A stretch of 64,000 nt of DNA from Adineta ricciae (lineage: Eukaryota > Rotifera > Eurotatoria > Adinetida > Adinetidae), in the NCBI GenBank assembly GCA_905250025.1, contig CAJNOJ010000439.1:1-64000 (forward strand), written 5' to 3'. Under the pieces are notes generated by a model. That model saw only the letters and a program-made list of their open reading frames with translations. It had not been told where the DNA came from and ran no database searches. A program made the translations under genes and the position numbers. Shown here piece by piece: positions 12,642 through 49,554 of this stretch (the first letter of the stretch is position 1; every line of letters begins with the position of its first letter).

Positions 12642-13369
12642 ATGAGATTTTTTTCATGGCCAACCGCAGTGGTTCTCATCTGTGGGATAGTATTCATTTG
12701 GTTTTTCGCAGGAACAATTGTACTCTCGCTACTTCCTGTATATCTTTCTGATAAATCGAACTTTGATCGTGTGCCTACACGTATGTACCATTGCTTTTTG
12801 TGCTGAGTAACGATTGTTTTCTAAATATTTTTCAAGATGTACAATTATTTGAATTGAGATATGCCACCACTCTCACGGATACGAAAGGTTATACAATAGG
12901 CGATATTCATGCATTGAATGCTCAGGTAGATTGTTTTTCTTTCATAAACTATGAACTTTCTTCTATGTTTTGATTTCAATTTCAGCTTAACAAAGAATTG
13001 CACGTAGGCACCCTCAATGTTTTGGCGGTTAAACTCCCTTCTTTCACAGATGCCAAACGAAAAAGACGAGCGTAAGATGTCTGTAAAAATTGTTCTCCGT
13101 CTCAAGTACTTTTCTTATTTGAAGAATATCTGATTGTGCAAGCCAACAGAATTCAACAGGAGACGTTCTCATAATTCAGTTTACATTAAGCAGTGATAGA
13201 ACGTGTGCTACTGCCAAATGTCGAGCGACTCTTATCGAGAAAGTCAAGACACATATTCAAACAAAATTTCCGTCGTTATCTTTACCAGTAACTCTATCAA
13301 ATGGTACATCAATTTCGCTTCTACTGTCATTGTGTTCAGTATCAGCTATTAGCACAAATACGAATTCGA
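12642..13369 (+). CDS. Left-arm giant gene, head exons 1-4: membrane anchor and juxtamembrane domain
   Basis: Exons are 12642-12780, 12837-12925, 12986-13071 and 13125-13369, encoding 186 residues and ending in phase 1. The ATG at 12642 is followed by a short basic/aromatic stretch and a hydrophobic segment at about residues 8-33 with no cleavage-like site, which suggests a type II signal anchor. Residues 100-104 are KRKRR, a furin-type cleavage motif, followed by a region with about four Cys before the first repeat module. A TATA-like CTATATATTTG lies near 12575. The right arm encodes the same head (62945-63669). I do not recognise the juxtamembrane domain. The splice phases fit throughout, so the gene model is good; the topology and cleavage are inferred. 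Confidence 0.8.
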
Positions 13370-13434
13370 GTAAGAAGTCTTGTGAAAAGTATTTCTTGAT
13401 TCTCGTCACTGTACTAAATTGTATTTTTGTTTAG

Positions 13435-15326
13435 AACTAACATGTGTCGACGGAATTAAGAATCAAGATGAAAGCGATGCTGACTGTGGTGGGTTAGTGT
13501 GCGCAGCTCGGTGCGGTATCAATCAACAGTGTACAAAGAATTCGGATTGTGTGAATAATAATTGTCATCAAACACAGAAGACATGTCAAGGTATTCGAAA
13601 GGCTTGCATGAGGAAATTTTTCGATTTGAAAATATCACTTCGAGAGACGAAAGCTCGTTTGCCTTCTGGCTCATGACCGACTGTATTTGAGTATCTAATT
13701 TTAGAACCATCATGTTCTGATGGAAATAAAAATCAAGACGAAAGCGGTGTTGATTGCGGTGGTTTGATATGCTCAGCTCGATGTGGTTTGGGACAATATT
13801 GCATTCGTAATACCGATTGCAGCATTGGCAACTGTCATCAAACAGATGGAACTTGCCAAGGTATAGTACCTCATGAAGAATATTAATATATTTCCTTAAG
13901 AGTAAAATAATTTTTGTAATTTTAGTTCCATCTTGCAATGATGGCAACAAAAATCAAGATGAAACTGGTATCGACTGTGGCGGTTTAACATGCGCAACTC
14001 GATGTGGAGCGAATCAAGCTTGTTTATACAATTCTGATTGTTCAAATAAAAATTGCCATAGCTTATTTCAAATATGTCTCGGTGAGCAAATATTCTCTTC
14101 ATATTCTTGCTAGCAGTGTTAATATTCTATTCTCACTACTTAAACCTGTTATATTGTAGCTGAATCTTGTTGTGACGGAAATCGGAATCAAGATGAAACT
14201 GATCTTGATTGTGGCGGTTCAATGTGTCGAGGCCGATGTAGTATCAACCAACAATGTACCAAGAATTCTGATTGCGCTAATAATAATTGTCACCAAACGC
14301 AAAAGGCATGCGAAGGTATTTGAAAAGCTTCCACGAAAACGATTCTATTTCAAACAATATCTCGTAAAGAGAAAGAAAACTTCCTCTTCCGATAAAAAGC
14401 AGAGTATATCGGAGTTTTCAATTTTAGCACCTTCTTGTACAGATGGAAATCAAAATCAAGACGAAAGTGGTGTTGATTGTGGTGGTCTGACATGTCCTGC
14501 TCGGTGTGATTTGGGCCAGCATTGCACTCATAACGCTGATTGTAGTAATGGTAACTGTCATCAAACAAAAAAAACTTGTCAAGGTATATTTATGAGAAAA
14601 TGTTCAAAAATATTTTTTGCAGGGCTTTCATTAGTTTTAATTAAGAATAACAGAATGTTTATCGTTCTAGTTCCATCTTGCGATGACGGAAACAAAAATC
14701 AAGACGAAATGGGTATTGATTGTGGTGGTTCAATATGTACAGCTCGATGTAATTTAAATGAAGTCTGTTCAAACAACTCTGATTGCTCAAGTAGAAATTG
14801 CTATACTTTATTTAAAATATGTCTAGGTGAGCAAATATCCTCTTCATATCTGTCTAGGAATCTGAATACTTTATTTCCATTACTTAAATTTGTTATATTG
14901 TAGCTCAATCGTGTTGTGACGGAAATCAAAACCAAGATGAAACTGATGTGGACTGTGGTGGTTCGATCTGTGGCGCTCGATGTAGTTTAAATCAAGTTTG
15001 TTCCAGAAATTCTGATTGTTTCAATAAGAATTGTCATCAAACAAATAAAACCTGCCTAGGTATTCGAAGAAGTTACATTAAGAAAGCTTAACGTAGAAAG
15101 ATTCTATAGATAGCGAAAACTGTTTTTTCGTATGATTCATAATAAAATGTTTTCAAATACCAAATTTTAGCACCTTCCTGTTCAGATGGAAATCAAAATC
15201 AAGACGAAAGTGGTGTTGATTGTGGTGGTCTGACATGTCCTGCTCGATGTGATTTGGGCCAGCATTGCACTCATAACGCTGATTGTAGTAATGGTAACTG
15301 TCATCAAACAAAAAAAACTTGTCAAG
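13435..15326 (+). CDS. Left-arm giant gene, module exons M1-M8
   Basis: Eight exons of exactly 156 bp, each in phase 1-1: 13435-13590, 13705-13860, 13926-14081, 14160-14315, 14428-14583, 14671-14826, 14904-15059 and 15171-15326. Each encodes one module of 52 residues with eight Cys: CxDGNxNQxExxxDCGG, then CxxxC, a Cys five residues later, DC, and two C-terminal Cys usually within NCHQTxKTC. The Asp/Asn-rich first half resembles a calcium-binding loop (inference). NKT and NQT sequons suggest N-glycosylation. The modules repeat in the order A-B-C (M1 is A, M2 is B, M3 is C, and so on). M5 and M8 are nearly identical. Apart from M1, this block has no counterpart in the right arm. Confidence 0.88.
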
Positions 15327-17024
15327 GTATATTTATGAGAAAAGTTTGAAAAATACTTTTAACGAATTATAATCGTAGTATCAAGCATTCCATTAAATTC
15401 GAGCAAGACTAAGATTTTTGAGATCTCCCCAAAATAGAGAAATTTTTCTGAAAAATCGATTTTACCATAATTGAATGGAAGTCATGATTAAATGCACATA
15501 CTTTTTAAATTTATAAAGAAAGTATTATGGCCTCCATAAATCGAATTCGTATCGAAATGAGCATTCAACTGATTGTTGCAAATCGAAAACAAAAGGAGTA
15601 AAACTGGTGTACAGTACGACTAGATTTAATTTTAGTATGAGACATTATAGCTTTCATATACGTAGATTGTCGGATAGAAATAAGAGTTGTTAGCAATAGC
15701 TTCTTTCTGGTCTTACTTAATTATAATTCACAAGCACAGCGCTCACGTAGAGCATAAAAACTACTTCTTTTTTTTCACGGGTCTTCATACAATTTCCGTC
15801 TTCCAGTAGTACCCACGGAAAAAAAATCAAGTAAAACCGCTTGAAACCGCGATTTCCTGAACCGCAGTCTCAAACGGTTTTTTCTAATCGCAGGAGTCAG
15901 ACCGTTAATGCGGTAAAAAAAACCGGTCAAAACCGCCGTAAATGACAACCGCGATTTCGAGCGGTTTTTTTCACCGCATTAACGGTCTGACTCCTGCGGT
16001 TAGGAAGAACCGGACAAAACCGAAGTCATCATTTACCGCGGTTTCGGGCGGTCATTTTTCACCGCAATAACGGTCTGACTCCTGCGGTTAGGAAAAACCG
16101 AAGTTATCATTTACCCCGGTTTCAGACGGTTGTTTTTCACCGTATTAACGTTCTGACTCCTCCGGTTAGGAAAAACCGACTGGAACCGCTATATTTCGAA
16201 AAACCGGTTCGAACCGGTTTTTCTTATTGACTACCTGATCAGCATATCTGACTCAGGTATCTCCAAATTCACCTGAACTTTGATGAAAGTTCAGGCGAGT
16301 TGCCCTTCGAGGGGCTGTGTAGTGAACTTATCAAAGTTCCATTGTATATCACTTATTTCATTTATAAGCGACTTAACCAGTAAACTGATTTTCAAAATTT
16401 TCATGAAGATACGAGGGCACGACATCCTTGATGTCTTTACGCATACCATTTGTCTTCCAAACACCGCGGTTTTCAGGACGCCAACCGTTTTATTTTAAAC
16501 CTCGGTCTACAATACACTCACCGCGATGTATCCAACCGCCAGTAACCGTTAGACTGATAAACCGCGGTCTCCAATACACTTACCGCGATGTATATAACCG
16601 CCAATAACCGAAGGACTTATATACCGCGGTTTATGACACCGGCAGTAACCACTATATGTTGAACCGCGTTTATCAGTGTATATACCGCGGTTTATGATAT
16701 CGGTAATAACCACTATATACTGAACTGCGTTTAACAAGCTACATACCGCGATTTATGACACCGGTAGTAACCACTATATGTTGAACCGCATTTATCAATC
16801 TATATACCGCGGTTTATGACACCGGCAGTAACCACTATATGTTGAACCGCGTTTATCAATGTATATGCCGCGGTTTATGATACCAGTACTAATCACTTTA
16901 TGCTGAACCGCGTTTATCAGTGTATATACCGCGGTTTATGATATCGGTAATAACCACTATATACTGAACTGCGTTTAACAAGCTACATACCGCGATTTAT
17001 GACACCGGTAGTAACCACTATATG
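15327..17024. repeat. Long intron after M8 with CCG-rich hairpin repeats and a 61-bp satellite
   Basis: From 15,830 to 16,240 a roughly 90-bp unit recurs, built on AACGGTCTGACTCCTGCGGTT, with an inverted copy at 15,890-15,930 that can form a large hairpin. From about 16,500 a second array starts, with diverged copies first and then seven regular 61-bp units from 16,621 to 17,024 based on ATACCGCGGTTTATGACACC. Units 2-3 and 6-7 are the same, giving a 244-bp (4 x 61) higher-order repeat. The array ends at the N at 17025. Sequence at about 15,540-15,760 resembles the intron after M13 (18,470-18,600), as expected from block duplication. None of this is in the right arm. Confidence 0.82.
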
Positions 17025-17028
17025 NTAG

Positions 17029-18191
17029 CTTCATCTTGCTGTGATGGAAATAAAAATCAAGATGAAAGTGATGCTGACTGTGGTGGGTTAGTGTGCGCAG
17101 CTCGGTGCGGTATCAATCAACAGTGTACAAAGAATTCGGATTGTGTGAATAATAATTGTCATCAAACACAGAAGACATGTCAAGGTATTCGAAAGGCTTG
17201 CATGAGGAAATTTTTCGATTTGAAAATATCACTTCGAGAGACGAAAACTTGTTTCCCTTCCGACTCATGACCGGCTGTATTTGGGTATCTAATTTTAGAA
17301 CCATCGTGTTCTGATGGAAATAGAAATCAAGACGAAACTGATATTGATTGTGGTGGTTCAATATGTAAGATCAAATGTGGTTTGAATTACTATTGTATTA
17401 AAAATGCTGACTGTATCAATAACAATTGCCATCAAACAAATAAAACTTGCCAAGGTATATTTAATACAAGGTAGTCATACATATATTTCAGATATCTTTG
17501 AGGCAACATAGGAAACTCCATTCGCTTTAATTGAGGATAAAATAGTGTTTATAATTCTAGTGCCATCTTGCGATGACGGAAATAAAAATCAAGATGAAAC
17601 TGGTGTTGATTGTGGCGGTTCAATCTGTACACAGCGATGTGATTTGAATCAAGTTTGTTCGAATAATTCTGATTGCTCAAATGGAAATTGTTATGTATCG
17701 CTGAAAATATGTCAAGGTGAGTATATATTTTCAACGTGACTATTTGAAAATATTGATGCCTTGTAGTACCATCGTGCTGTGATGGAAATAAAAATCAAGA
17801 TGAAACTGATATCGACTGTGGTGGTTTGACGTGTGGAGCTCGGTGTGGCTTAACTCAAGTTTGTTCAAACAATTCCGATTGTGCTAATGATAATTGTCAT
17901 CAAACAAATAAAACATGTCAAGGTATTTGGAAGCCTTGCATTGAAATAGAACATCAGTTGGGAATATTCTAATGAAGAGAAGAAAACCTTTTTTTAACAG
18001 TACATAAGAGGATATATTTGAATATTTAATTTTAGAGCCATCTTGCCCTGATGGAAACCAAAATCAAGATGAAACTGATTTGGACTGCGGTGGTGCATCA
18101 TGTAAAATTCGTTGCGCTTTGAATCGAACCTGCGCGAAGAATTTCGATTGTGTTAATAATAATTGCCATCAAACAAATAAAACTTGTCAAG
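17029..18191 (+). CDS. Left-arm giant gene, module exons M9-M13
   Basis: Five 156-bp phase 1-1 exons: 17029-17184, 17299-17454, 17561-17716, 17767-17922 and 18036-18191. M9 and its following intron are almost identical to M1 and its intron (13,460-13,680). Its acceptor TAG lies three bases after the N at 17025. The order is A, B, C, A, B. M10-M13 each have a one-to-one partner in the right arm (62454-62609, 62192-62347, 61986-62141 and 61714-61869). The eight-Cys pattern is intact in all five. Confidence 0.88.
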
Positions 18192-18969: not shown

Positions 18970-20290
18970 AGCTGAAAATCACATGTTCAAGAACAGATCA
19001 GAATGTCTCAATAGGTCGAGCTCGAAGGTACCCAGGTCGATCATTCCTGCCACTGGATCCGTTGAAATCTGAGTCGGTTCCGGTACAGCTCTTCTCGATT
19101 CCGGCACAGTTTTCGCCGATTCCAGCAAGTTCCGGCAGGTTCCTTGCCGCCGGATTCCGGCCGGAATTGCACAGGAAATATCCGATCAGTTCCTGGCCGT
19201 TTCCAGCTCGAAGTTTGCAGGAAACGGTCGGGAAATGACGGGAACCTACGTTTGAACTTCCGGCCGGAATCCNTTCCGGTACAGCTCTTCTCGATTCCGG
19301 CACAGTTTTCGCCGATTCCAGCAAGTTCCGGCAGGTTCCTTGCCGCCGGATTCCGGCCGGAATTGCACAGGAAATATCCGATCAGTTCCTGGCCGTTTCC
19401 AGCTCGAAGTTTGCAGGAAACGGTCGGGAAATGACGGGAACCTACGTTTGAACTTCCGGCCGGAATCCGGCGACAAGGAAATGGTCGGAAAACGAACCTA
19501 ACCGGCCGGAACCGACCGTGCCATAATAACCTGGGCTGGTTCTGTGGATTCTTTTCTCTAGATACAAAATGAATACCATCTCGATTTGAATACTCCGCCA
19601 CTATGAGATCTTGAGGGTGCTGATGCTGTATAAACGACATTAAAATGCGTTTAACATATTCATTCACGTACGCCGTTTGAGCTACACCTTGTGGGTGAAG
19701 AATGGTAGCAAGATGCCCCTCTAAAATGATGCAATCCATACCCGAATTTTTTTTAATCCTTTTTCTCTGCTTGAATTTGACTTCTGATCGTGTCGCACTT
19801 TAATTCAACACGGAAAAATCATGATTAGCAGAAATTGATTCATTGCACAAAAGAGAATGTTTTTCATCATCGATGACTCAGTCAACAGTACCACTGATCG
19901 ATGTTTGGTATAATTGACGCGCACGTGTAGGAATTTCTTTAAGTTGCGTGTCGCTGTATTCAAGGGAGCCCATTTATTTTTTCGATACATAATACTCATA
20001 AATTTCAAATCTCGACCAACTGCCGCAATATGAACATTAGAATGTAGAGTAAATCGGTGTAAAGAAGTACCACGATTGTGATCAAACCAGTGCCTTAATC
20101 CAGATAGTGTCCGCGTTGTTAATTTCTAGCGATCACCAGAATATAATCAGTCGCCAATAATACAGAATTTCTCAAACGTTTCAATCGTATCACATATACT
20201 TTGACGTAGTATTCGTTCGTATAACAAGTGATTTCCAGTTTTCACATATTGTTGCCCATTCCGTTTTACAAGATATTTCCATCCTCAACG
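18970..20290 (-). pseudogene. Mariner-superfamily transposase fossil in the intron after M13 (left copy)
   Basis: The minus strand reads as the C-terminal half of a Tc1/mariner-type transposase in several frames. There is an EIPTRARRLY-like stretch, an acidic FIDDE-type motif more clearly seen in the right copy, HPQGVAQTAYVNEYVKRIL, DGIHFV and ARPIETF. The Trp expected after PIETF is TGA. The ORF is broken by frameshifts and by the GC-rich insertion at 19,028-19,537. It lies antisense inside the giant gene, and the same fossil is at 59,340-60,165 in the right arm, so it inserted before the arms diverged. The intron flanks (18,192-18,970 and 20,290-20,534) show nothing else. Confidence 0.65.
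19028..19537. mobile_element. GC-rich insertion within the mariner fossil, left arm only
   Basis: The right arm reads continuously across this site (around 60,090-60,110). The left arm instead has about 510 bp rich in TTCCGGCCGGAA and similar palindromic words, beginning near ACCCAGGT and ending near ACCTGGGC, possible short inverted ends. A 195-bp segment is present twice (19,078-19,272 and 19,274-19,468), split by the single N at 19273, which is probably an assembly overlap rather than a true tandem copy. The translated ORFs are compositional. No family assigned. Confidence 0.6.
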
Positions 20291-20534: not shown

Positions 20535-23500
20535 ATCCATCTTGCGATGACGGAAATAAAAATCAAGATGAAACCGGCGTTGATTGTGGTGGTTTCGTTT
20601 GTGGAGCTCGATGCGATTTAAATCAAGTGTGTTCAAACAACTCTGACTGTTCGAATGGAAACTGCCACACATCATTGAAACTATGTCATGGTGAGCAAAC
20701 ATTGTCTTATTCCTGTTCAATGGCGAATATTAATATTTTTCTTATACTGATAATATTCGTCTTCTTGTAGCACAATCTTGCAACGATGGAAATAAAAACC
20801 AAGATGAAACTGATGTTGATTGCGGTGGTTTTGCTTGCGGAGCTCGATGTAATCTAACTCAAGTTTGCTCAAATAATTCTGATTGTGACAATAATAACTG
20901 CCATCAAACAAATAAAACATGTCAAGGTATTTTCAAACTTCGAATAAAGAATTCAATTTTAAAATGCTTCATAAAGAAACAAAATCTTATTTCGATTGGA
21001 AGAAGTTTAAAAAAATCCTTTAAATATTTAATTTTAGAGCCTTCCTGTTCCGATGGAAATCGAAATCAAGATGAAACCGATGTGGACTGTGGTGGTACAT
21101 CATGCAAAATTCACTGCGCTCTTAATAGAACCTGCGGGCAGAATTATGATTGTGCCAACAATAATTGTCATAAAACAAATAAAAGTTGTCAAGGTATATT
21201 TTGCAACCAATACTGAAAGGTGTCTAACAATTATTATACATAGTCAAAAGGATTTCATTAGATGCACTTAAAATGAAATCGAATTTCTAATTCTAGTTCC
21301 ATCTTGCGATGATGGGAATCAAAACCAAGATGAAACTGATGTGGACTGTGGTGGCTCGATCTGTGGCGCTCGATGTAGTTTAAATCAAGTTTGTTCCAGA
21401 AATTCTGATTGTTCAAATGGAAATTGTTACGCATCGCTGAAAATATGTCAAGGTGACTAAATATTTTCTTTGTCTTTGATTGAAAAGATTAGCATGTTGT
21501 TCGTATTACTCGGAATAATTTTCTTCTAGCACCGTCGTGCTGTGATGGAAACCGCAATCAAGACGAAACTGATATTGACTGCGGTGGATCAGTATGTCCG
21601 GCGCGATGCAATTTAACTCAAGTTTGTTCAAGCAATTCTGACTGTCTTTACAACAATTGTCATAAAACAAATAAAACTTGTCAAGGTAAATTTGGAGAGA
21701 ACACATTCAAATACTTTTAACAAAGTTCTGTAATTCGATAAAAATCAAACGTTTTGAAAGCGCAATGCTTTGATACATAACTGTGACGTAGTTGAAAAAG
21801 TAATTTTCATGTTTCTAGTTCCATCCTGCGATGACGGCAATAAAAACCAAGATGAAACTGGACCTGATTGTGGCGGTCACAATTGTACCATGCGCTGTGC
21901 TTTGGGTATAACCTGCTCAACAAACTCAGATTGTAATAATGGAAACTGTCATTTTACACTGAAAACATGCGAAAGTAAGCAAAATATTTATTTTACAATA
22001 GCAACATGACACATTTATGTTTCAGACCCATCTTGTCCTGATGGCAATCAAAATCAAGGTGAAACAGATGTGGATTGCGGCGGTCCATCATGTACGATTC
22101 CTTGCGCGCTTAACAAAACTTGCACACAAAATTCCGATTGTGACAATGGCAATTGTCATCATTCATTACATAAATGTTCAGGTATCTTTCCTCGAACGAT
22201 GAAACTGACCGTCTACAGGTTGTTCCATAATTATTTGCTTAGTACCTTCATGTGATGATGGAAATGAAAATCAAGATGAAACTGATGCTGATTGTGGTGG
22301 AAACACATGTTCCACTCGATGTAATATAAATCAAACTTGCTTACACAGTCCAGATTGTACTACTGCAAATTGTCATCAGACGTTGAAAACTTGTCAAAGT
22401 AAGTGAAGAAATATTGTGAAGGGTAATGTTCTGATGTATGATATCTTTCAGAGCCATCATGCGACGATGGAAATCTAAATCAAGCCGAAGTAGATATAGA
22501 TTGCAGCGGACCGTGTTCAACCAAGTGTGTTCTCAATCAAACTTGCATTGATAATGCTGATTGCGTAAATGGTAATTGTCATCACGTCACGAAAAAATGT
22601 TCAGGTACGTTTCGTGTCTTCGAGAATGATCTTATTTATGAAAAACAACTCCTTGTAGATCTATCGTGTGAGGACGGAAACAGAAATCAAGGTGAAGGTG
22701 ATATTGATTGCGGTGGTCCATGTCCCATCATGTGCAATATAACTCAAACTTGTGCAGTTAACACAGATTGTGCAAACGGAAACTGTCATCATACAAATCT
22801 CGCATGCGAATGTAAATAACTTTATTCGATTAATAATCCAGAAATAATTCCAACGACACTTTTAGTACCGTCTTGCGATGATGGGAATCGAAATCTAGAT
22901 GAGACGGATGTGGATTGTGGTGGTAGTAATTGTACCAAACGGTGTACAACCAATAATACTTGTCATCAAAATTTTGATTGTGACAACGGCAATTGTCATC
23001 ATTCATCAAAAACATGTCAACGTAATTGGAATATTGAACTAAAGAAAAGCTTTTCTTCTTTCGTTGTTTCAGCGTTTTCCTGTGGCGATGGAAATAAAAA
23101 TCAAGGTGAAGGTGATATTGATTGTGGTGGTCCATGTCCCACTATGTGCAATATAACTCAAACTTGTGCAGTTAACACAGATTGTGCAAATGGAAACTGT
23201 CATCATACAAATCTTACATGTCAAAGTCAGTTATGTTTTCATCATTGAAAAGCTTTCAGCTGTCTATTTCGATGTACATATTAACAGTTCCTACGAGAGA
23301 AATATATCTTCATATTTAGATCCATCTTGTAATGATGGAAACGTCAACCAGAACGAAACTGATGTCGATTGTGGTGGTCCAGTATGTGGCAATTCTTGTA
23401 ATGTTGACCAAGCTTGTACTCAAAATTCCGATTGTGCCAATGGTAACTGTCATCATACAAATCTTACATGTAAAGGTATGTAGAATTCGTTTTTCTTATT

Positions 23501-24465
23501 TCGTATTCCTCCATATATGTGCCACGTCTCTTTAGCACCCTCGTGCAATGATGGAAATAAAAACCAAGATGAAGGTGATATTGATTGTGGTGGTGTTTGC
23601 ACGACTAAATGTACAATTGGTCACACTTGTTCGAAGAATACTGATTGTGTCAATGGTAATTGTCATCAAACAAATAAAACGTGCCAAGGTAAATACAAAG
23701 TTGTGTTTTCTCCATGGAAGGATCGCTTCGTTTATTGCATTTAGTTCTATCTTGTGATGATGGAAATAAAAATCAAGATGAAACAGGCGTTGACTGTGGT
23801 GGAACGACATGTGCTGCTCGATGTGCTCTGGGTGTATCTTGTCTGAATAATTCAGATTGTAACAATACCAATTGTCATCAAGCATCACACCTATGTGACA
23901 GTAAGCTAAGCATATTTCTTAACATCTGAGTCATATTTCGTGAGTGCAAACGGTTTTTGTGTACACTTTTCTATCTGTGAAAAAGTAACTCTAAGATTTG
24001 CCAATATTATCCGACATTGAACCGAATTAACAGAATTTACTATGAAAACAAGCTAAAAATTATCATATCTTGTATAGCTTTGTCATGCTCCGATGGAAAT
24101 AAAAATCAGAATGAAACAGACGTCGATTGTGGAGGCTTGTGCAACACAAAATGTGCTGTTGGTAAAAATTGTACACAAAATTCTGACTGTACAAACCAAA
24201 ACTGTCATCATACCTCACTCACATGTACAGGTGAGCAGTCGATCTTCTTCAATAATATGTTCACTGTTTATCTTGATTGAAACTGTATGAAATTCGTTTC
24301 CTATCTTTTCAGTTCCATCTTGTGATGATGGAAATCAAAATCAAAACGAAACGGATGTTGATTGTGGTGGTTTATGTAGCACAAAATGTCTTCTGAATCA
24401 CACTTGTTTGGTGAATTCCGATTGCGCCAATGGAAATTGTCATCATATCTCAAAGAAATGCTTAG
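20535..24465 (+). CDS. Left-arm giant gene, module exons M14-M30
   Basis: Seventeen phase 1-1 exons: 20535-20690, 20771-20926, 21038-21193, 21297-21452, 21530-21685, 21819-21974, 22026-22181, 22243-22398, 22452-22604, 22659-22811, 22866-23021, 23073-23225, 23320-23475, 23536-23688, 23745-23900, 24078-24230 and 24313-24465. M14-M18 continue the C-A-B-C-A cycle. M14-M21 are 156 bp. From M22 on most are 153 bp, because one residue between DCGG and the third Cys is lost (CGGxC instead of CGGxxC). Each has a collinear right-arm partner between 55,173 and 59,103. All eight Cys are kept in every module. Introns are about 50-180 bp. Confidence 0.88.
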
Positions 24466-25394
24466 GTAAATAGGAATATATTATATGAGACAGAATTAGG
24501 TTTTAGACAAAGATGAATTCAGATTTGAAACGATGAAAGTAAAGAGAGTTCGAATAAGTGTTTGAAATAAGCATCAGTTGTTGACTTTTATTATAAGTTA
24601 ATTCCGATACAATGCATTTGAAATCTGAGAAAAGACTAAGATTAGATGTAGATCTTTCTGACATCCAGCACTGACATTTTACAGAAAAGATTGGACTAGT
24701 AGATACTATTGTTACAAAGACGAACGGCTTTTGCGACTCTATGCCGCATAGAATGGGATCTTCACCAATTTCAAACACTCTGAAAAGAATTTCGACAGCA
24801 AGACGTAGAGCATGAATCCAAATCCGGCGTTGCAAGTCAGCTTTCGCGTAACTAATTGACGATTTTGTTTTTCATTGTTTCTCTTATAAGACACTTTTCA
24901 CGAAATCTCATATTCAGAGATGAAATGTGCACATTAGCTTGTTCATAGAAGCACTTTTCTACTTCATCGTCACAGTCCATCATCGACACTGCTAACAAAC
25001 TTCAAGACATACAAATCTTTTTCTCACTTCTTCATAATGATAGACATTTCAGAAATGGTAAACTAACGATACAGAATCAACATTCTAGCGTCCTTTTCAT
25101 AAACTATTCTCACCCTCACTCAATCATATATGTAACTCGAGATAGATCTCAATAGAAAGGTAAATGAAATAAATCATCTTTGGAATCTTACGAAATCAAC
25201 AAAAACGCTATACCATTAGAGGAAAACCGACCTTAGTTTTTTCTTCTATCTCAACTTTGTGCCTTTTATAATGAACGAATTTGACTAAGTTTTATTTTGC
25301 CTGAACCTTTTCCACGCATTTATTGATGATTTCGTTATTGACATTTTATTTTGCATTGAATAAGAATCGATACTCACACAAATCTATGTTTTAG
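24466..25394. other. Long intron between M30 and M31
   Basis: About 930 bp, conserved in the right arm (54,458-55,172), with no domain, transposon end or tandem repeat that I can identify. Small antisense ORFs near 24,503-24,835 look like chance. Confidence 0.5.
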
Positions 25395-28300
25395 ATCCAT
25401 CTTGCGATGATGGAAATAAAAATCAAAATGAATCGGATATTGATTGTGGCGGCTTATGTTCAAACAAATGTACGCTTCATTCTGGTTGTGCCAATAATGT
25501 CGATTGTGCTAACGGAAATTGTCACCATACATCAAATACATGCGAAAGTAAGTATTCTACTCGATAACAAAAATATGAGACGCACAGTAAGAGCGATAGA
25601 TGAACAGCTGCTAGCTAGTATTGCAAGTTTTGAAACTGAGAAAAATGAATAGTAATTTTACTGACTTCGCAATAGAATACGATGTGAGGAATCTTTCGCG
25701 TGATTTGATTCTTATATCATTGACGAGTTTTCCTCGTAGATCCATCATGTACTGATGGAAATCAAAATCAAAATGAAACAGATATAGACTGCGGCGGTCT
25801 TTGTCTCACGAAATGTGCACTTAACCAAACTTGCAAGGTGAATGTGGATTGTGCCAACAGCAACTGTCACACGACACAATTGAAGTGTTCAGGTGAGTAG
25901 AAACTGCTTGGACTTGTTTTCACCGGCAAAATTACATTTATCGACGACTCGAAATTGTTCTTCGTTCGCATTTGCATTCTAGCTGAGTCTTGTGATGATG
26001 GAAATAAAAACCAACAAGAAACAGATATTGATTGTGGTGGAACGCCGTGTACTGTACGATGCGCGATCAATATGAAGTGCTTAATCAATACAGATTGTGG
26101 AAATGGAAACTGTCATCGAAGTCAATTGAAATGCTTAGGTAACTATATCTATCTTTCTATATATTAAATCAAAGAGATATTTTCATATAAAAAATGTTCA
26201 CTTTTAGCTCCATCGTGTGGAGACGGTAATCTAAATCAGAATGAAACCGATATTGATTGTGGTGGTATATGTGGTGCAACATGTAAAGTTAATCAAACAT
26301 GCTCAACCAATACAGACTGCCTGACTATAAATTGTCATACACCATTGAAGACATGCCAGCGTACGTAGGAATGTTTTCGTGCTATATAGTTATATAGAAT
26401 CATCTGTTTACATATTTCTAGCGATTTCGTGTTCTGATGGAAATAAAAATCAAAATGAAACCGATATCGACTGTGGTGGTCCTTGTAGCATTAAATGTAA
26501 TATTAATCAAACTTGTTTAGTCAATAGTGACTGTATTAACACCAATTGTAATCAGTATACTAAAAAATGCGATGGTAAGTCGTTGGAAGTCGAATTTCCA
26601 TAGGATTTCGTTTTTTGTGAGAAATAATCAACTATAAATCACGGCAAAAATGCGCTGGTCCGGAAAAGAGTCATTGTTGCATATACAGTAGATTATGAAT
26701 CAATTTTTTTGTTATTTGGAATATTTCAGTTCCGTCGTGTGTGGATGGAAATAAAAATCAAGCAGAGACGGATGTCGATTGTGGCGGCACGTGTAATTCA
26801 ACATGCGTGATCGGGAAAGCATGTGCAGTTAATACAGATTGTGTCAATGGAAACTGCCATCAGTATAATCATAAATGTCAAAGTAATTCACTCATCTCAT
26901 CCACACTAGTAACATCTAGACAAGCCTGATGTTACTTTCTTTACTTCTAGATCCCTCTTGCAGCGATGGAAACCTAAATCAAAACGAAACTGACCTAGAT
27001 TGTGGCGGTGTATGTGCTGGAACATGTACATTCAATAAAGTATGTAAAATCAATGGAGATTGTGCAAATGGCAATTGCCACGTGTATAATCATACGTGTC
27101 AACGTAAGCAGAAATATTTCGATGCGTTTTGCCTAGATAAAATGAACATCTCATATCTTCTTTAGCCTATTCTTGTTCTGACGGAAATAAGAACCAAGGA
27201 GAAGGTGATGTTGACTGTGGTGGACCTTGTACTACGACCCCGTGCTCTCTAAATCAAGCATGCAACGTGAACTCGGATTGTACGAATGGAAACTGTAATC
27301 AGTATAATCATACCTGTCAGAGTAAGTGGAAACATTTTCGATTCATAGAATCATATAAAATGGCAAGTTGATTCCTTTTTTAGTTTATTCATGTGCTGAT
27401 GGAAATAAGAATCAAGGAGAAGCTGATGTTGATTGCAGTGGTCCATGCACTACGAAATGCGCTGTGAATCAGACGTGTGCGACGAATGCCGATTGTGCCA
27501 ATAGTAACTGTCATATATCAGCAGGAAAATGTGAAAGTATGTAGATATTTCTGTAGATTTGTTTGTATCAATGTGACGATAGCGTGGGGAAAGAGAAACG
27601 GAGTGGAATTAAAAACTGTTTTTAGAGCTATCGTGTTCCGATGGAAACCAGAATCAAAACGAAACGGATATTGATTGTGGCGGCGTATGTGGCTCAACAT
27701 GCAAACTGAATCAAACATGCTCAGTAAATTCAGATTGTGTAAATGGAAATTGTCATACAACATTGAAGACATGTCAACGTAAGTAGCGACACTTTCATGT
27801 GAAGGAATTAGATGAATACTGACTTCACTTTGGATTTCAGCACTTTCGTGCTCGGATGGAAATAAGAACCAAGGAGAAGGTGATATTGACTGTGGTGGTC
27901 CTTGTAGCACTTTGTGCAATATAAGTCAAACTTGTTTGACAAACACAGATTGTGCGAATGGAAATTGTCATCAGTCAAATCACACTTGTCAGAGTAGGTT
28001 GCATTCTTACTTGCTATCTGTTTTATTCATCACAATCGAATGTTCATCCTAGATCCATCTTGTAATGATGGAAATAAAAATCAAGATGAAACAGATACAG
28101 ACTGTGGTGGTGTAGCATGTGGTGCATCATGTTCTATTGGGAAAACGTGTAGCGCAAACACAGATTGCAGCAACGGCAATTGTCCTACTAGTGTAAAGAA
28201 GTGTCAAGGTATATCCATATTCATGCACATTCGACAATGTGACGTTATCTAAAATTTGATTGAACGTTTGTATTCATATGTTTAGCTTATTCGTGTACCG

Positions 28301-31300
28301 ATGGTAATCAAAATCAAGGAGAAAGTGATATCGATTGTGGAGGTCCATGCTCTACAAAGTGCAGTATAAGTAAAAGTTGTAACATCAGTGCTGATTGTAC
28401 GAATTCGAATTGTAATGCTGCATCACATAAATGTGAAAGTAAGTGAAGAGTTCCTTCGATTTATTGACCCTTAGCATGGAAAACTCATTGAAACCGTGAC
28501 TAATTCTATTGTTGCTAGTTCTATCTTGTGTTGACGGTAATAAGAATCAAAACGAAACTGATATCGATTGTGGTGGCATATGTGGCTCGACCTGCGCACT
28601 GAACAAGACATGTTCGTCAGGTGCCGACTGTGCAAATTCAAATTGTAATACGGGAACGAAGAAATGCGTCAGTGAGTGACTTTTTACTGAACATTTTGTT
28701 TATGTTCGTGTGAAATGACCGTCTATCCGTTATGTTTATATTATAGATCCATCTTGTAACGATGGTAATAAGAATCAAAACGAAACGGATACCGACTGTG
28801 GTGGTGTATGTGGAGCAACATGTGGAGTCGCCAAAGTATGCCAGATCAATGGAGATTGTACAAATGGTAATTGTCATACAGGACTGAAGAAGTGTCAAGG
28901 TGAGTACATAATTTCCATAAGCGTTGTATTCAATGAACATAAAATCTAATGCGATAAATATTCGATAGCTACAGTATTAGGGAAAGCACTACACGAGACA
29001 AATGAGGAGATGCAAGTAGGTAATATACTGCAAATATGAAATTTCGGAGCTGCAAGCTAGTTCCAAAGATTGAATATATAGTAGATAATTTTTATACTTG
29101 TCAAAATATTCTATTAATACCACTTTTTACTATCTATTGTTTTCAAAACCTGATATTCTTGCTGACGGCGTATTACAAGATTTGTGTTCTTTTTAGATCC
29201 ATCGTGTTCCGATGGAAATAAGAATCAAAATGAGACTGATCTGGATTGTGGCGGCCTATGTGGTGCAACATGTAATCTTGATCAAACATGTTCAAAAGGT
29301 TTGGATTGCATAATTGGAAATTGTCATGCAACATTGAAGACATGCCAACGTAAGTAGAAAGACTTTTCTGCTACTTTACTAAGTAAAAGGATAACTTCGT
29401 TTCTTTTTCAGCTGTTTCATGTTCTGATGGCAATAAGAACCAAGGAGAAAGTGATATTGACTGTGGTGGTCCTTGTAGTACTTTGTGCAATATAAGTCAA
29501 ACTTGTTTGGCAAACACAGACTGTGTAAATGGAAATTGTCATCAGTCAAATCACACTTGTCAGAGTAGGTTGCATTCTTATTTGCTATCTGTTTTATTCA
29601 TCACAAGCGAATGTTCATCCTAGATCCATCTTGTAATGATGGAAATAAAAATCAAGGAGAAATTGACGTTGATTGTGGTGGCCCGTGCTCTACTAAATGT
29701 GCTATTAATCAAGTGTGTACAGCAAATAGCGATTGTGCCAATAACAATTGCCATATAACGAAACATCAGTGTTTAGGTAATATTCTGGCGGTTTTTTAAA
29801 ATGAAGTTTTGATTTTACCTCTGTGCCTAACATTGTTATGTAGCTCCTTCTTGCGATGACGGAAACCTAAATCAAAATGAAACTGACTTGGATTGCGGTG
29901 GAATTTGTATTGCTACATGTGCGCTGAACCAATCGTGTAAGACCAACGCAGATTGTGCAAACTACAACTGTCCAGCGGCAGTAAAGACATGTCAACGTAA
30001 GTCGAAGTATTTTTGTCCGATGGAATCAGATAGAACAATAGCTTAATTTAATTTTCAGCTTATTCTTGTTTTGATGGAAATAAAAATCAAGGAGAAGGTG
30101 ACGTTGATTGTGGTGGTCCTTGTAATACGGCACTGTGTGCTCTAAATAAAATGTGCAACGCGAACTCAGATTGTGCTAATGGAAACTGCAATCAATATAA
30201 TCACACATGTCAACGTAAGTTCAAACATTTCCATGCTATGGAGTTAGATCCAGTGTTAGGTTGATTACTGTTTTAGCTCCATCTTGTAACGATGGAAATA
30301 AAAATCAAAACGAAGTTGATATCGATTGTAGTGGTTCATGTACTACAAAATGTTCTATCAATCAAGCGTGCGTAGCAAATAGCGATTGTGCCAATAACAA
30401 TTGCCATACAACGAAACATCAATGTTTAGGTGATGGTTGAAAGATTTTTCTAGAACGATTCTAACTTTTTAACATCGTTATTAGCTCCTTCTTGTGATGA
30501 TGGGAACCTAAATCAAAATGAAACTGACTTGGATTGCGGTGGAGTATGTGTGGGAACTTGTGCGTTTAATCGAACTTGTAAGATCAACGCAGATTGTGCA
30601 AATTATAACTGTCCTACAGCGGTGCAGAGATGCGCACGTAAGCAGAAAGCGTTCGTGTTATTTCAGTAAATGAAGTAATAAATTCATTGTTTTTGTAGTT
30701 TATTCTTGTTTTGATGGAAATAAAAATCAAGGAGAAGGTGACGTTGATTGTGGTGGTCCTTGTAATACGACGCTGTGTGCTCTAAATAAAACATGCAACG
30801 TGAACTCAGATTGTGCTAATGGAAACTGTAATCAGTATAATCATACATGTCGACGTAAGCCAACTGTTTCCGTATGTTGGAATCAAATAAAATATTCAGT
30901 TGATTTCTTTTCTAGCTGTTTCCTGTTCTGATGGAAATAAAAATCAAAATGAAACTGATGTTGATTGCGGTGGTGTATGTGGTGCAAAATGTAAAGTTAA
31001 TCAAACCTGCTCCGTAAATACAGACTGTACGAATGGAAATTGTCATCATACAAATCTGACATGTCAAAGTAAGTCTACTATTCTGTGTTTCATTGCTTTT
31101 TCAATTGAAGATAAATAATTTACTCTGACTTTCATCATTTAGATCCATCTTGCAATGATGGAAATAAAAATCAAGGAGAAATTGACGTTGACTGTAGTGG
31201 TCCCTGCACTACAAGGTGTATTGTTGGTCAGAACTGTAACTCTAACGGTGATTGCGCAAATGGAAACTGTAATGCATATTCATATAAGTGTAATGGTAAA

Positions 31301-31808
31301 TAAAGATTTTCTTTGTTTCTGAGCATTGTTTTTGCGTGGAAATTAAGTTTACTACGATGTCTTTACGTAAGCCACAGGAAAGTTCTAACTTGAGAGTTCA
31401 GGTATGAAACAGGCGATATTGTGTTACGTAGGAAAATATGGTTAAATGGATCCTTGAACATTTGCATTTACCTTTCAATTTCGATGCTGCTGGATTTTCT
31501 TCGAAATATAGTCTATAAGATTTGTTGCTTTTATATGTTTTTAGTCCCAAACTGCAACGATGGAAATAAGAATCAAGACGAAACAGATGCGGATTGTGGT
31601 GGCGCTATCTGCTCAAACCGATGCGACAACAATAGAGCTTGTCTAAATAGCACTGATTGTGGTACAGAAATGAGATGCAGTGTGAAGATGAGCGTGTGTC
31701 AATGTAAGTTTTTACTGACTCAGAAAGCACGAAGAAAACGTTTCATAGTAGTCATATACCATTTTCTCAGGTTATAAACAAATTGTTCGATTATCCGAAA
31801 TCAAATAA
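25395..31808 (+). CDS. Left-arm giant gene, module exons M31-M56 and a first terminal exon
   Basis: Twenty-six module exons: 25395-25547, 25740-25892, 25983-26138, 26208-26360, 26422-26574, 26730-26882, 26951-27103, 27166-27321, 27384-27536, 27626-27778, 27841-27993, 28053-28208, 28286-28438, 28519-28671, 28747-28899, 29197-29349, 29412-29564, 29624-29776, 29844-29996, 30059-30214, 30277-30429, 30485-30637, 30699-30854, 30916-31068, 31143-31295 and 31545-31703. Most are 153 bp. The 156-bp ones carry an extra residue either before the third Cys or inside a CNTTLC-type loop. M56 is 159 bp and ends in CQC. A 38-bp exon (31771-31808) then adds YKQIVRLSEIK and a stop. The same terminal exon recurs after M63, so this end may be a duplicated gene end or an assembly copy (N at 31921). 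Confidence 0.83.
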
Positions 31809-31998
31809 TAGAAATTGACTATCTCCTATTGTTCTCATATAAAACTTTGTTAGAGATGAGGAAAGTCGTCTTTGTATAGAATGAATTTCGATGAAGAATG
31901 TGGATCTCGTGAAACTCACANTGAAGACATGTCAACGTAAGTAGCGACACTTTCATGTGAAGGAATTAGATGAATACTGACTTCACTTTGGATTTCAG

Positions 31999-32154
31999 CA
32001 CTTTCGTGCTCGGATGGAAATAAGAACCAAGGAGAAGGTGATTTTGACTGTGGTGGTCCTTGTAATACGACACTGTGTCCATTGTACAAAACGTGCAACG
32101 TGGACTCAGATTGTGTAAATGGCAATTGTCAACAGTCAAATCATACGTGTATAC
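31999..32154 (+). CDS. Left-arm module exon M57
   Basis: A 156-bp phase 1-1 exon of the CNTTLC class that follows the N at 31921. The 77 bp between the N and its acceptor match the M40 end and M40-M41 intron (27,764-27,840). In the right arm the equivalent exon (45706-45861) is preceded by ten further modules that are missing here. The gap therefore probably hides modules, not a short spacer. The donor is CGTAAGT, and the next exon in order is M58, beyond the MULE fossil. Confidence 0.78.
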
Positions 32155-32334
32155 GTAAGTAGAAATGTTCGTGCTTCATTTAAGCGGAGAAAAACAGCTA
32201 ATTCCTAGTTGTGGTCATGCTCCTTAGGTAGCCAATTAAGAAATGGAAGCATTTTATAAGAAGCAAAAATATTTCGTTCAGAGTTTTAAAGATTACTGAG
32301 CAATGCGGATGGAAAACAACAAAGAAGAAAGATC

Positions 32335-33761
32335 TTACTCATTGTTAAGCACATAATGTTTATTATCTTTGTCTTCCTCATAAAAAATATCTGTAGAACG
32401 ATAATATAAACGCAGGATTTTGTGGAGATAGTCGGCAAGATGAAAAATTGATTTAGGTAGTTTCCTTTTAATTCCAACAACTCTGTCTCGCTTATCACTG
32501 CTGTTGCTCGAATCGAATAGCGGTGGACTCATCTGATTCCTGAATATAATTTATCGAAGTCTATATATGGATGGGTTTGGCAGTGTGAATTGAGTTGCCC
32601 ATGATAACCTGCGAGATGATTGTTGGTTTTAGAACGAGCACCGATCGTAGCAAACAAATTTCAGAAGGATACTGGATATCGAGCGTTAGCAATATAAATA
32701 CGTAGGATATTGTCATTCAGTTTAATGAAATCATTATCAATGTCGGCAATGTTTTCGATCATAATCGACACTGCTATGTTGATCTCATTCGGTGATAATA
32801 ATGACAGAGAAAGAATATTAGTAATCGGAGGATAAGCTTCTGTTTTTTTAAAGACGTTTCAAACCTCTGTTCTTCACTTATCTCCATGCATCGCGCCCAA
32901 AATGGAATGGACTTCCCTTTATTGAAGCTGGAGAAAATATTTCTGAGAATACGTTGAATGTAGACATTTCAATATCAATTAGAATTGAACGAGGTGCCAA
33001 GGATGCATCAATTCGTTGAGCATATAAAATCAATTCTTTTAAAAGAGATGAATAAGTAGACTTTTCCTTGTTTGGCGGTACAAAATACACAACAAGTTTC
33101 GTGCTTTATTCATTCCACATGTGAATACTATAACTCTGGTAGAAAAAGCTTCGGGGCAGTACGAAAAGTACTATCAGCATCTTCTCGTGCGTTCGGGTCG
33201 AGCATTTTGAGATCCGTAGCAAAATCAGACACCCAGTACCGAGGATGATTTATGATTACAAAAGAGAAATTCTCGGTTTGATATCGTTCGACTTAGTTGT
33301 GAAGGTACGCAGATTGATAATAAAGATTTCAGTATAAATGGATGGAAAGTCGATCGATAACTGTACAAAACTGTTTTCATATGATTGAACATGGGGACAA
33401 TCACTGCAATACCATGGTTCCGTCTAAACTTTTTAGCCTCTTAAGTATATAGTAATGATATTGGTGCTGTTGATTGATTCCCTATTTGCTACTTTATTGA
33501 TGCAAAGCATTCGTAGACTTCAATATAAGCTTTTGCTTAGTGTTGTATATGGTGAGAGCAATTGAGGTTGTTGGCAAAACTTTTATTGATCGAAACTCCA
33601 ATAGTTGTCAGTGATGCATTGCACTGTTTATGTGTGCAAGTCCAATATTCTGAGCCATTATTCTTAGACCGTTTGCGACCAAATAGGTGTTTCTGACATA
33701 AAACTCTTGTGTCGCCTGATTGTGTGGTGACCTGACTGAAATTTTGGCCGTTCGTTGACAT
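32335..33761 (-). pseudogene. FLYWCH zinc-finger MULE transposase fossil in the M57-M58 intron (left copy)
   Basis: The minus strand starts with ATG at 33761, about 55 bp after a TATATATA box, and reads a FLYWCH-type zinc finger (GSEYWTC, KQCNASLTT, CSHH). Further on, in other frames, come MULE transposase motifs: FRTAPKLFYQSYSIH, ILIDIEMS with a catalytic-type Asp, and a C-terminal RTNNHLAGYHGQL. Frameshifts and stops separate them. It sits antisense within the giant gene, and the right arm has the same fossil at 43,929-45,530. The zinc-finger ORF is still open on this side, while the right copy has TGA in place of its Trp codon. The remaining intron sequence (32,155-32,334 and 33,762-34,175) shows nothing else. 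Confidence 0.75.
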
Positions 33762-34175
33762 GGCTGTAGCGAAATGTATTCATTTCGTTACGGAAAACGG
33801 TGCGCTATATATAAGACTGCAGAAACAGGGAAGTATCCATGCGTGACGATCGGAAAGATCGTTATCACAACTAAGAAAGCAGCAGATAACTCAGAGAAAT
33901 TCTAATCATGTCATACGAGATGAAATAACAAATATATACATATGAGATGTCATCGAGAGGAAAATACCGAGAAAAGAAAAATCAACAGGTAAAAAGGAGG
34001 AAATTCTTTTTGATTGAATTATCTGCTCTTAAATTGCGGTCATTTTTATTAACTAAAAGAATTTTTCATTTATCCAACCAGACCCTCAAACCCAGTCACT
34101 TTCAATAAACTAATTAAAAAAACTGACCGCAATTGGGAAGTAGCGAAGAAAACTACTATGTTCATATTTGTTTAG

Positions 34176-36061
34176 CTATTTCATGTTTTGATGGAAATAA
34201 AAATCAGAACGAAACTGATATCGATTGTAGTGGTCCATGTGCTACAAAATGCACTATTAATCAAACGTGTGCAGTGAATAGCGATTGTGCCAATAGTAAT
34301 TGTCATACTACAAAACACCAATGTTTAGGTAATGTTGCTACGGTTTTTTTTTAATAACTTTTTCTCACTTATTCCAACACTGTTATCTAGCGCCTTCTTG
34401 CAATGATGGAAATCTAAATCAAAACGAAACTGATTTGGATTGTGGTGGCATATGTATTGGAACATGCGCGATCAATCAAACGTGTAAGATCAATGATGAT
34501 TGCGCCAACGGCAACTGCCCTACAGCAGTGAACAAGTGTCAGCGTAATTATAAATCTTTTCGGTGCCTTGGACTCGATAGAATAATAAATTCATACCTGT
34601 TTTAGTTTATTCTTGTTTTGATGGAAATAAAAATCAAGGAGAAGGCGATGTTGATTGTGGTGGTCCTTGTAATACCACCCTATGTTCTTTCAATAAAACG
34701 TGTAATGCAAACAGTGATTGTGCCAATGGAAACTGCAACCGTCAAAAATCACGTTGTCTAGGTATTTATCGAACTGAGAGAAAAAGTTAACTATTTATAT
34801 TGTATTTTTACGAATCGTTCCTCTTCTATTTAGCTCCATCTTGTAACGATGGAAATAAAAATCAAAATGAAACCGATATTGATTGTGGTGGTGTCTGTGG
34901 TGCAAATTGTCAAATTAATCAAAACTGTACGGTGAACACAGATTGTGCGAATAAGAATTGCCACCATACAAATCTCACATGTACAGGTAATTTTATATTT
35001 TTGTGTTTTATTCCGTATCAAATTAGAGATAAGAGAATTCATTAAAATTTTTATAATTTACGTTAGTTCAAGTTTGTGATGATGGAAATAAAAACCAGGG
35101 TGAAACTGATATTGATTGTGGCGGTTCGATATGTGGTTCGACGTGTATTGTTGGTCAAGCTTGTGTTTACAATTCAGATTGTAAAAATGGCAACTGTCAT
35201 AATACTTTAAAGAAATGTAGTGGTAAATCAAATTTTTTCGAAAATTTCTGGACACCGTTTATACAAAGATTGAGCTTAGCGATAGTATCTTTGCACGTAG
35301 TGAAATCTCTCTATAATGGACAGCATGGGGATTTTTCAAAGTATCCACTGTAGAGAGATGTGCACTTTATAGAGATGAGGTTCTTTCTAACAGAGTGCGT
35401 TGGTAACAAAGTAAATGTATTTAATGAGTATGAGAAGATAGTCAACGGATATGCCAAAACACTACCGTTTGTCTTTACTTCTCTTTGTATAAACATTAGC
35501 TTGGAAAAACCAATCGATGGTTCAAAAATAGCTTAATTTCACTAATGGACACTATCAAAGTGATGAAAAATCCTCATCAAATAAATTTACACATTCACGA
35601 CCACTTTGAGAGGCTCTGTTGTAACTGACGAAGAATCTCGTTATATTGAGATCGTGGGCACGCGGTAGATGATAGTGTGACGAAGGGAAATGTAGTTAGA
35701 TGGGTGTTACAATAATGGTATCTAGCTTTAAACGTTAACATTACTAATTTTCCCAAATACTTGATTTATAAAACTAACTGTTGATGTATATTCTTAGATC
35801 CAGTTTGTAACGATGGAAATAAGAATCAAGACGAAACAGATGCGGATTGTGGTGGCACTATCTGCTCAGACCGATGCGGCAACGGAAAAAATTGTACAGT
35901 TACCAGTGATTGCGCCACAGACAATCTTTGCAGCGTAAAGAAGAGCATGTGCCAATGTAAGTTTTTACTGACTCAGAAAGCACGAAGAAAACGTTTCATA
36001 GTAGTCATATACCATTTTCTCAGGTTATAAACAAATTGTTCGATTATCCGAAATCAAATAA
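34176..36061 (+). CDS. Left-arm giant gene, module exons M58-M63 and terminal exon
   Basis: Exons are 34176-34328, 34391-34543, 34606-34761, 34834-34986, 35067-35222, 35798-35956 and a terminal 36024-36061. M58-M60 repeat the three-module cycle of M51-M53. M63 is 159 bp and ends in CQC like M56. The 38-bp last exon adds YKQIVRLSEIK and a stop. There is no C-terminal membrane segment, consistent with an N-terminal anchor being the only one. If every module were spliced together the protein would have roughly 3,400 residues. Partners in the right arm run from 41,762 to 43,592. Confidence 0.85.
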
Positions 36062-49513: not shown

Positions 49514-49554
49514 NATTTCTATTATTTGATTTCGGATAGTCGAACAATTTGTTT

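What the first reader, a model, noticed from the sequence alone, without database searches (positions are those of the whole stretch)
12642..36061. Giant gene built from about 63 near-identical phase 1-1 exons, each one eight-cysteine module
Every module exon is exactly 153, 156 or 159 bp with phase 1 at both ends, and each encodes one complete eight-Cys unit with CxDGNxNQxExDxDCGG. With an N-terminal membrane anchor and furin-like site in front, this is an unusually long modular cell-surface or shed protein. Because any exon can be skipped or added without shifting the frame, the locus could generate many isoforms or change module number by recombination. Similar short Cys-rich DCGG repeats exist in other organisms, but I know of no described gene with this exon-per-module architecture on this scale.
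Basis: partly seen in the sequence, partly recalled or inferred. Interest (0 to 1): 0.85.

Follow-up and report, generated by a model that had tools for sequence, protein, structure and literature searches.

The report
Rotifer exon-per-module cysteine-rich surface gene
A rotifer genome carries a very long gene-like array in which each small exon encodes one cysteine-rich unit of a kind also found in bacteria; the pattern is real, but how many units sit in one gene is blurred by assembly breaks.

Summary
63 eight-Cys modules lie on the + strand at 13437-35958, and 63 of 63 sit in phase 1-1 AG..GT exons of 156 (32), 153 (29) or 159 bp (2). Four upstream exons encode a hydrophobic anchor, a KRKRR site and an unnamed Cys domain; all 67 exons join without a stop into 3,435 aa. 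The modules are under constraint: dN/dS 0.135 between the two array copies.

Corrections. The exons are not near-identical (mean 57% protein identity). A second array of 65 module hits on the - strand is a mirrored copy, about 91% identical in its longest blocks, probably the other haplotype. The + array crosses three single-N joins; two different 3' ends suggest two genes per haplotype. Longest N-free runs: 43 modules; start exons plus 29.

The organism is a bdelloid rotifer, probably Adineta ricciae. A basic site before the Cys domain occurs in 9 of 9 gene copies read. The module has no significant Pfam or NCBIfam match, but a Myxococcales protein has five in tandem in one ORF. Most likely a shed or secreted extracellular rod.

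The parts
12642..12780 (+). exon 1: start codon and hydrophobic anchor (MRFFSWPTAVVLICGIVFIWFFAGTIVLSLLPVYL...)
   Evidence: array B 63531-63669 (-)
12837..12925 (+). exon 2: spacer
   Evidence: array B 63386-63474 (-)
12986..13071 (+). exon 3: spacer ending in the furin-like KRKRR site
   Evidence: array B 63243-63328 (-)
13125..13369 (+). exon 4: unnamed Cys-containing cap domain; 29 matches in the genome at E<=0.1
   Evidence: array B 62945-63189 (-)
13435..15326 (+). modules A1-A8, in one N-free piece with the start exons; A2-A8 have no close partner in array B
17025..17025 (.). single-N scaffold join at the end of a tandem repeat of period 61, 4 bases before exon A9
17029..18191 (+). modules A9-A13
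19273..19273 (.). single-N scaffold join; 195 bases on either side are identical
20535..31703 (+). modules A14-A56, 43 modules without an N; A56 is the first terminal-type module (159 bp)
31921..31921 (.). single-N scaffold join directly after the first 3' end; its left side matches 35787-36173 at 90%, its right side matches 27764-27989 at 87%
31999..35956 (+). modules A57-A63; A63 (35798-35956) is the second terminal-type module
39609..39609 (.). single-N join between the two arms of the inverted repeat
41832..62877 (-). mirrored array B, 65 module hits (2 cut by N joins at 49514 and 52702), probably the other haplotype
62945..63669 (-). the four N-terminal exons of array B, same lengths as in A

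Best explanation
The locus is the largest array seen here of a bdelloid rotifer gene family. Its precursor is a membrane-anchored (type II) protein. A proprotein convertase cuts after the basic KRKRR stretch and frees a chain of one Cys-rich cap domain followed by many eight-Cys (DCGG) modules, each held by its own disulfides. The long chain acts as an extracellular rod: a structural, coat or adhesive component. Array length grew by duplication of single phase 1-1 exons. The window shows both haplotypes of the locus joined tail to tail by the scaffolder, and each haplotype probably holds two such genes. Shown: exons, frame, hydrophobic stretch, basic site, constraint on the modules, family-wide layout. 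Inferred: topology, disulfides, cleavage, shedding, rod shape, role, the haplotype reading, two genes per haplotype.
For: 63 of 63 clean phase 1-1 exons; open 67-exon frame; dN/dS 0.135, 95% interval 0.105-0.163, over 53 A/B module pairs; basic site before the cap in 9 of 9 gene copies read, including KKKRRE at C123, RKKKRQ at C1023 and RQKRE at C246; module exons at each of these loci; anchor exon matched by tblastn in C29 (5e-5), C167 (0.001) and C20 (0.006); no Cys between anchor and basic site, so no disulfide would hold the cut chain to the anchor (sequence); flank and N-terminal dS of 0.10-0.14 between A and B fits the published mean KS of 0.135 between A. ricciae homologs (passage); two distinct 3' ends, each present in both arrays.
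Against: No RNA, protein or localisation data. Three N joins inside array A. Module dS (0.22) is higher than in the flanks. The module model is of middling confidence (pLDDT 70) and the cap model is poor (51). Potential N-glycosylation sites are not clearly above composition in array A (81; shuffle mean 67.5, maximum 87) though they are in array B (92; maximum 86). The hydrophobic stretch could also be a cleaved signal peptide. In C246 a first pattern scan found no basic site; it was seen on reading (RQKRE).
Confidence: 0.5

Rival explanations
1. One single gene of about 63 modules per haplotype, ending at A63; the first terminal-type module A56 is an internal exon that is spliced like the others.
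For: A56 has a good phase-1 donor (T|GTAAGT) like A63; no second full set of N-terminal exons was found inside the array; the whole chain is open.
Against: The 217 bases after A56 up to the N are identical to those after A63 while the modules themselves differ at 35 of 159 bases, as expected of a shared gene end; the N join follows at once; N-free pieces of array B show two different continuations after the A45-type module (B48 to B49, and B31 to B32).
Confidence: 0.3
2. Arrays A and B are a true inverted duplication (a genomic palindrome as described for Adineta vaga), not two haplotypes.
For: The mirror extends over 4750-12048 against 64080-71861; palindromes of homologs are reported for A. 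vaga (passages).
Against: The arms are held together by a scaffold join (N at 39609); no palindrome was found in the earlier A. ricciae assembly (figure legend), if this is that species; divergence equals that of homologs.
Confidence: 0.2
3. The array is a diversity-generating surface locus: exons are skipped or chosen, or module number changes between lineages, giving many isoforms (recognition or immune role).
For: Any single module exon can be dropped without a stop; A2-A8 and seven of B49-B58 lack a reciprocal partner; array B lost one acceptor (AG to AT at exon B20) and has one GC donor (B13).
Against: No RNA data; 53 of 63 A modules have a reciprocal best partner in B; strong purifying selection, dN/dS 0.135, no sign of diversifying selection overall.
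Confidence: 0.15
4. Short separate genes or pseudogenes: the modules are mostly not joined in one transcript.
For: Other loci carry as few as one or two module hits in the stretches read (C5, C428, C224, C20, C512); four gaps of 0.9-2.3 kb between neighbouring exons occur in array A.
Against: 63 of 63 exons keep their splice sites and frame, and constraint is strong; only one start-exon set per array.
Confidence: 0.08

Closest known systems
Tandem DCGG eight-Cys modules of bacterial surface proteins (Myxococcales L001, L002)
   Same: Same eight-Cys order, C-x-D-G..N..E..D.DCGG, DC, and a PSC-type linker; five modules in tandem in L001; 49-56% identity in the best segment
   Different: Bacterial copies lie in one ORF without introns; L001 has TIG and FG-GAP repeats behind them; no anchor plus basic site of this kind seen in the L001 sequence
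Drosophila Dumpy (EGF-DPY giant matrix protein)
   Same: Giant extracellular modular protein from dozens of exons (78 coding exons by the abstract start); one weak profile hit of the module to the Dumpy DPY peptide (E 0.062)
   Different: No EGF match in the two modules scanned; only half of the module matched
Cys-rich repeats of ascidian rusticalin-like genes
   Same: Cys-rich repeats in a multi-exon animal gene, discussed in connection with horizontal transfer (abstract and passages of PMC7379824)
   Different: The repeat sequence is shown in a figure that is not held, so it was not compared
Knottin-like peptides
   Different: Foldseek E above 1; not significant

Membership tests
DCGG eight-Cys module family (bacterial type) | eight Cys in fixed order with C.DG..N..E..D.DCGG | tested here: met
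   alignment A3 of 51 window modules with L001 and L002: C3, D5, N9, E12, D16, C17, G19, C22, C26, C32, D37, C38, C43 invariant, C50 in 90% or more
DCGG eight-Cys module family (bacterial type) | occurs in head-to-tail arrays | tested here: met
   63 in array A; five in L001
DCGG eight-Cys module family (bacterial type) | described as a curated family | tested here: not met
   two modules scanned: best Pfam hit E 0.75, NCBIfam none
Bdelloid family: anchor, basic site, cap, DCGG exons (defined here) | basic site of furin type before the cap domain | tested here: met
   9 of 9 gene copies whose sequence was read there; the other cap matches were not fetched
Bdelloid family: anchor, basic site, cap, DCGG exons (defined here) | hydrophobic anchor exon | tested here: met
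   C439 A and B, C29, C167, C20; C246 only E 0.15; not searched beyond the stretch fetched for C621 and C123; none found by tblastn at C1023
Bdelloid family: anchor, basic site, cap, DCGG exons (defined here) | cleavage at the basic site | not testable with these tools
   needs protein data
Dumpy-type EGF-DPY giant proteins | EGF modules | tested here: not met
   no EGF match in the two modules and the N-terminal part scanned in Pfam; other modules not scanned
Dumpy-type EGF-DPY giant proteins | DPY module | tested here: inconclusive
   E 0.062 over 20 residues
Knottin fold | knottin-like overlay of the module | tested here: inconclusive
Adineta-type genomic palindrome | mirror symmetry held by continuous sequence between the arms | tested here: inconclusive
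   arms match, a single-N join lies between them
Horizontally acquired gene | nested among bacterial sequences in a tree, absent from close animals | not tested
   no eukaryote collection was available; bacterial relatives found, direction not tested
Rusticalin-like Cys-rich repeat | same Cys spacing | not tested
   repeat sequence is only in a figure

The most novel reading that the evidence does not exclude
A bacterial Cys-rich surface module entered an asexual animal lineage, gained one intron per module, and became an exon cassette that now builds a family of shed surface proteins whose module number and isoforms differ between the two haplotypes and between clones, a surface-diversity system driven by exon recombination without sex.
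Probability: 0.12. Interest if true: 0.8.

Novelty: new variant of a known kind. Interest (0 to 1): 0.45.

Why it matters
It describes a family of anchored, furin-type, Cys-rich modular proteins in a bdelloid rotifer, built on a module that is common ground with bacteria yet gave no significant match in Pfam or NCBIfam. It gives a clear case where each module is one frame-neutral exon, so splicing and recombination in an animal without known regular sex can be tested directly by long reads. It also warns that haplotype joins can make one array look like a longer single gene.

Tried and rejected
Near-identity of exons: rejected. Glycosylation-site enrichment as a clue to a mucus role: not clear (array A 81 against shuffle maximum 87; array B 92 against 86). 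Known fold for the module: nothing significant. Known fold for the cap: model too poor to search. Pfam: no match to the N-terminal part; caps of C20 and C167 gave only sub-cutoff hits (OMP_b-brl_3 E 0.021, Phospholip_A2_2 E 0.0084). Viral relatives: none of 14 candidate stretches confirmed. Telomere repeat TGTGGG as a bdelloid marker: no excess over the control (76 against 89 matches). The recalled spliced leader with G at position 1 gave 0 exact matches; with up to 2 mismatches 44 matches, all beginning TGCTTATTACAA, against 0 for the control. Window RNA families and tRNAs: none. Literature: 'DCGG' with 'cysteine-rich' 8 papers, none on this module by title; 'bdelloid' with 'furin' 5 papers, none on this family by title; four of five exon-class terms 0 papers; 'bdelloid' with Cys-rich, transfer, exon and repeat terms 3 papers; 'Adineta' with family terms 495 papers, of which only 8 were listed. 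These searches are all that stands behind the statement that the family was not found in print.

The script called 3 of 63 exons unclean and one 147 bp, which allows the C-x-C ending, shows these were script limits. The dN/dS (0.23 for A/B, and dS 1.2-1.5 for neighbours) rested on pairs not anchored on the first Cys and is replaced (0.135, and dS 1.3-1.8). The GC (36.0%) included three bacterial loci; one search gives 35.1% for own stretches. The pattern scan missed the basic site of C246, which one search shows.
Full report
What is in the sequence. A profile built from 16 modules finds 63 modules on the + strand from 13437 to 35958 and 65 on the - strand from 41832 to 62877. In the + array 63 of 63 modules lie in exons with AG before and GT after, phase 1 at both ends: 32 of 156 bp, 29 of 153 bp and 2 of 159 bp. 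In the - array 61 of 65 do; two of the rest are cut by an N, one has a GC donor, one has lost its acceptor, AT where array A has AG. The modules are not near-identical: over 1,953 pairs the mean protein identity is 57%, and 4 DNA pairs reach 90%. Modules one to four places apart differ at dS 1.3-1.8, counted on the 38 to 41 pairs of equal length at each distance, so most duplications look old.

The N-terminal part. Four exons (12642-12780, 12837-12925, 12986-13071, 13125-13369) with matching phases give a chain that starts with a hydrophobic stretch, runs through a Cys-free spacer to KRKRR, and continues into a domain with four Cys before the first module. Among the positions sampled the hydropathy over 19 residues is highest, 2.77, from residue 10. 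The other array has the same four exons with the same lengths and GT..AG signals. All 67 exons joined give 3,435 aa, 514 Cys, no stop. Dropping any one module exon opens no stop, 63 of 63.

Is it coding and kept? Between the two arrays, 53 modules are reciprocal best pairs; A2-A9, A47 and A50 are not. Over the 53, dN is 0.030, dS 0.22, ratio 0.135 with 95% interval 0.105-0.163. That is strong purifying selection.

Assembly. The contig (72,249 bp, of which the window is the first 64,000) holds eight single Ns at 4623, 17025, 19273, 31921, 39609, 49514, 52702 and 68209. Several look like joins of contigs at repeats: 195 bases on both sides of 19273 are identical, the left side of 52702 repeats 48286-48555 at 98%, the right side of 31921 matches 27764-27989 at 87% (98.6% over its first 147 bases). 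Pieces between Ns hold 8, 5, 43 and 7 modules of array A and 22, 12 and 29 whole modules of array B. The N-free piece 52703-68208 holds the start exons of B and 29 modules, so one start followed by at least 29 module exons does not rest on joins.

Two copies. The contig is a mirror image: 4750-12048 matches 64080-71861 at 88-96%, and the arrays match at about 91% in the longest blocks, with an N between the arms. Synonymous divergence is 0.14 and 0.10 for two exons of the flanking metallophosphoesterase gene and 0.10 for the N-terminal exons. The published mean KS between A. ricciae homologs is 0.135, and no palindromes were detected in that species' earlier assembly (passages of PMC5916493). 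I read A and B as two haplotypes joined tail to tail by scaffolding, at about 80%.

Two 3' ends. Modules A56 and A63 (B42 and B65) are of a special 53-aa type with a C-x-C reading at the end. The 217 bases after A56 up to the N are identical to those after A63, while the two modules differ at 35 of 159 bases. A56 has its partner in B42 and A63 in B65, so both ends are older than the A/B split. In array B, N-free pieces show two continuations of the same A45-type module: B48 goes on to B49-B65, B31 goes on to B32-B42. The simplest reading is two genes per haplotype that share near-identical stretches, chained by the scaffolder; the 63-module chain would then be a composite. This is inference. 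A single gene is not excluded.

Organism. The own genome has 130.46 Mb in 1,033 contigs, C1033 being 10,113 bases long. The spliced-leader sequence that I recalled for bdelloid rotifers occurs 44 times with one or two mismatches, against 0 for the reversed control, and 0 times exactly. That bdelloids have a shared 23-nt leader exon is in PMC1925144 (passages), where I did not find the sequence printed. Contigs 129 and 130 are 277,305 and 281,877 long, close to the N50 of 283.8 kb at L50 129 of A. ricciae ARIC003 (135.6 Mb in 4,302 sequences, GC 35.5%; table in PMC7943196, passages), if the held genome leaves out the short sequences; stretches held here average 35.1% GC, the window 36.8%. Species identity is therefore likely but not proven. 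The 18S search did not complete.

The family. A module query finds 150 matches, all that were scored of 303 first-look candidates. Fifteen stretches of ten other contigs were scanned with the profile; 14 of 15 hold modules, 1 to 13 on a strand, mostly about 200 bases apart. The cap domain finds 29 matches at E<=0.1. In 9 of 9 gene copies whose sequence before the cap was read, a basic site precedes it: KRKRR (C439 A, B), NRKKRA (C20), RRKKRE (C621), RQKRE (C246), ERKKRD (C29), KKRKRE (C167), KKKRRE (C123), RKKKRQ (C1023). C246 and C621 are close copies of each other, as A and B are, so the number of independent loci is smaller. C123 was picked through the cap and carries at least 8 module exons by eye. 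C20 also has a Thr-rich stretch after the cap.

Relatives elsewhere. One scan of bacterial and archaeal genomes gave 55 pattern matches, 6 confirmed. L001 and L002 (Myxococcales) are single ORFs with tandem modules; L001 has five, with a similar linker, followed by TIG and FG-GAP repeats. L003 to L005 hold only the first part of one module; L006 matches over 19 residues and showed nothing with my stricter pattern. The module is therefore of a bacterial type as well. Direction of transfer was not tested.

How it works. Best reading: a type II membrane precursor, cut by a furin-family convertase, releases a long disulfide-rich chain that serves outside the cell as a rod, coat or adhesive. What is shown is anatomy, constraint and family-wide layout. 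Cleavage, release and role are inferred. A diversity role by exon skipping is possible but unsupported by any RNA here.

Verdict. A real, well-preserved feature; the scale as one gene is uncertain; the kind (class 1-1 exon per extracellular module, giant modular protein) is known; the module, cap and family in a rotifer were not found in the searches made.

Noticed in passing
window 41832-63669 (-): Mirrored second array with its own start exons, probably the other haplotype.
   Followed up: yes
window 57239-57394 and 55736-55891 (-): In array B one module exon has a GC donor and another has lost its acceptor (AG to AT), a natural candidate for frame-neutral skipping, or a sequencing error.
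   Followed up: partly
window 11896-12060 (+) and C439 64086-64244 (-): Weak cap-domain-like stretch (E 0.001) just upstream of the gene on both arms, perhaps a remnant of another family member.
   Followed up: no
G000:C55 about 464250-475000: AT-rich mitochondrial stretch joined to a nuclear contig after an N, probably an assembly join. COX1 was found by search; nad2, nad6, atp6, nad1, cob, nad4 and nad5 are named by eye only.
   Followed up: partly
G000:C6, C8, C77, C99: Spliced-leader copies often come as inverted pairs about 153 bases apart.
   Followed up: no
window 37747-39486: Stretch between the two arms with broken frames, looks like an old mobile element; three pieces gave no Pfam match worth keeping.
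   Followed up: partly
window 16618-17024: Tandem repeat of period 61 bases that ends at the N join before module A9.
   Followed up: no
window 3281-5421 and 5561-6353: HSP70 gene (cut by the N at 4623) and a metallophosphoesterase gene upstream of the array; the latter is on both arms.
   Followed up: partly
L046 (G000:C29:357000-366900): Two four-module arrays on opposite strands within 10 kb, another tail-to-tail pair, here without an N in the stretch.
   Followed up: no
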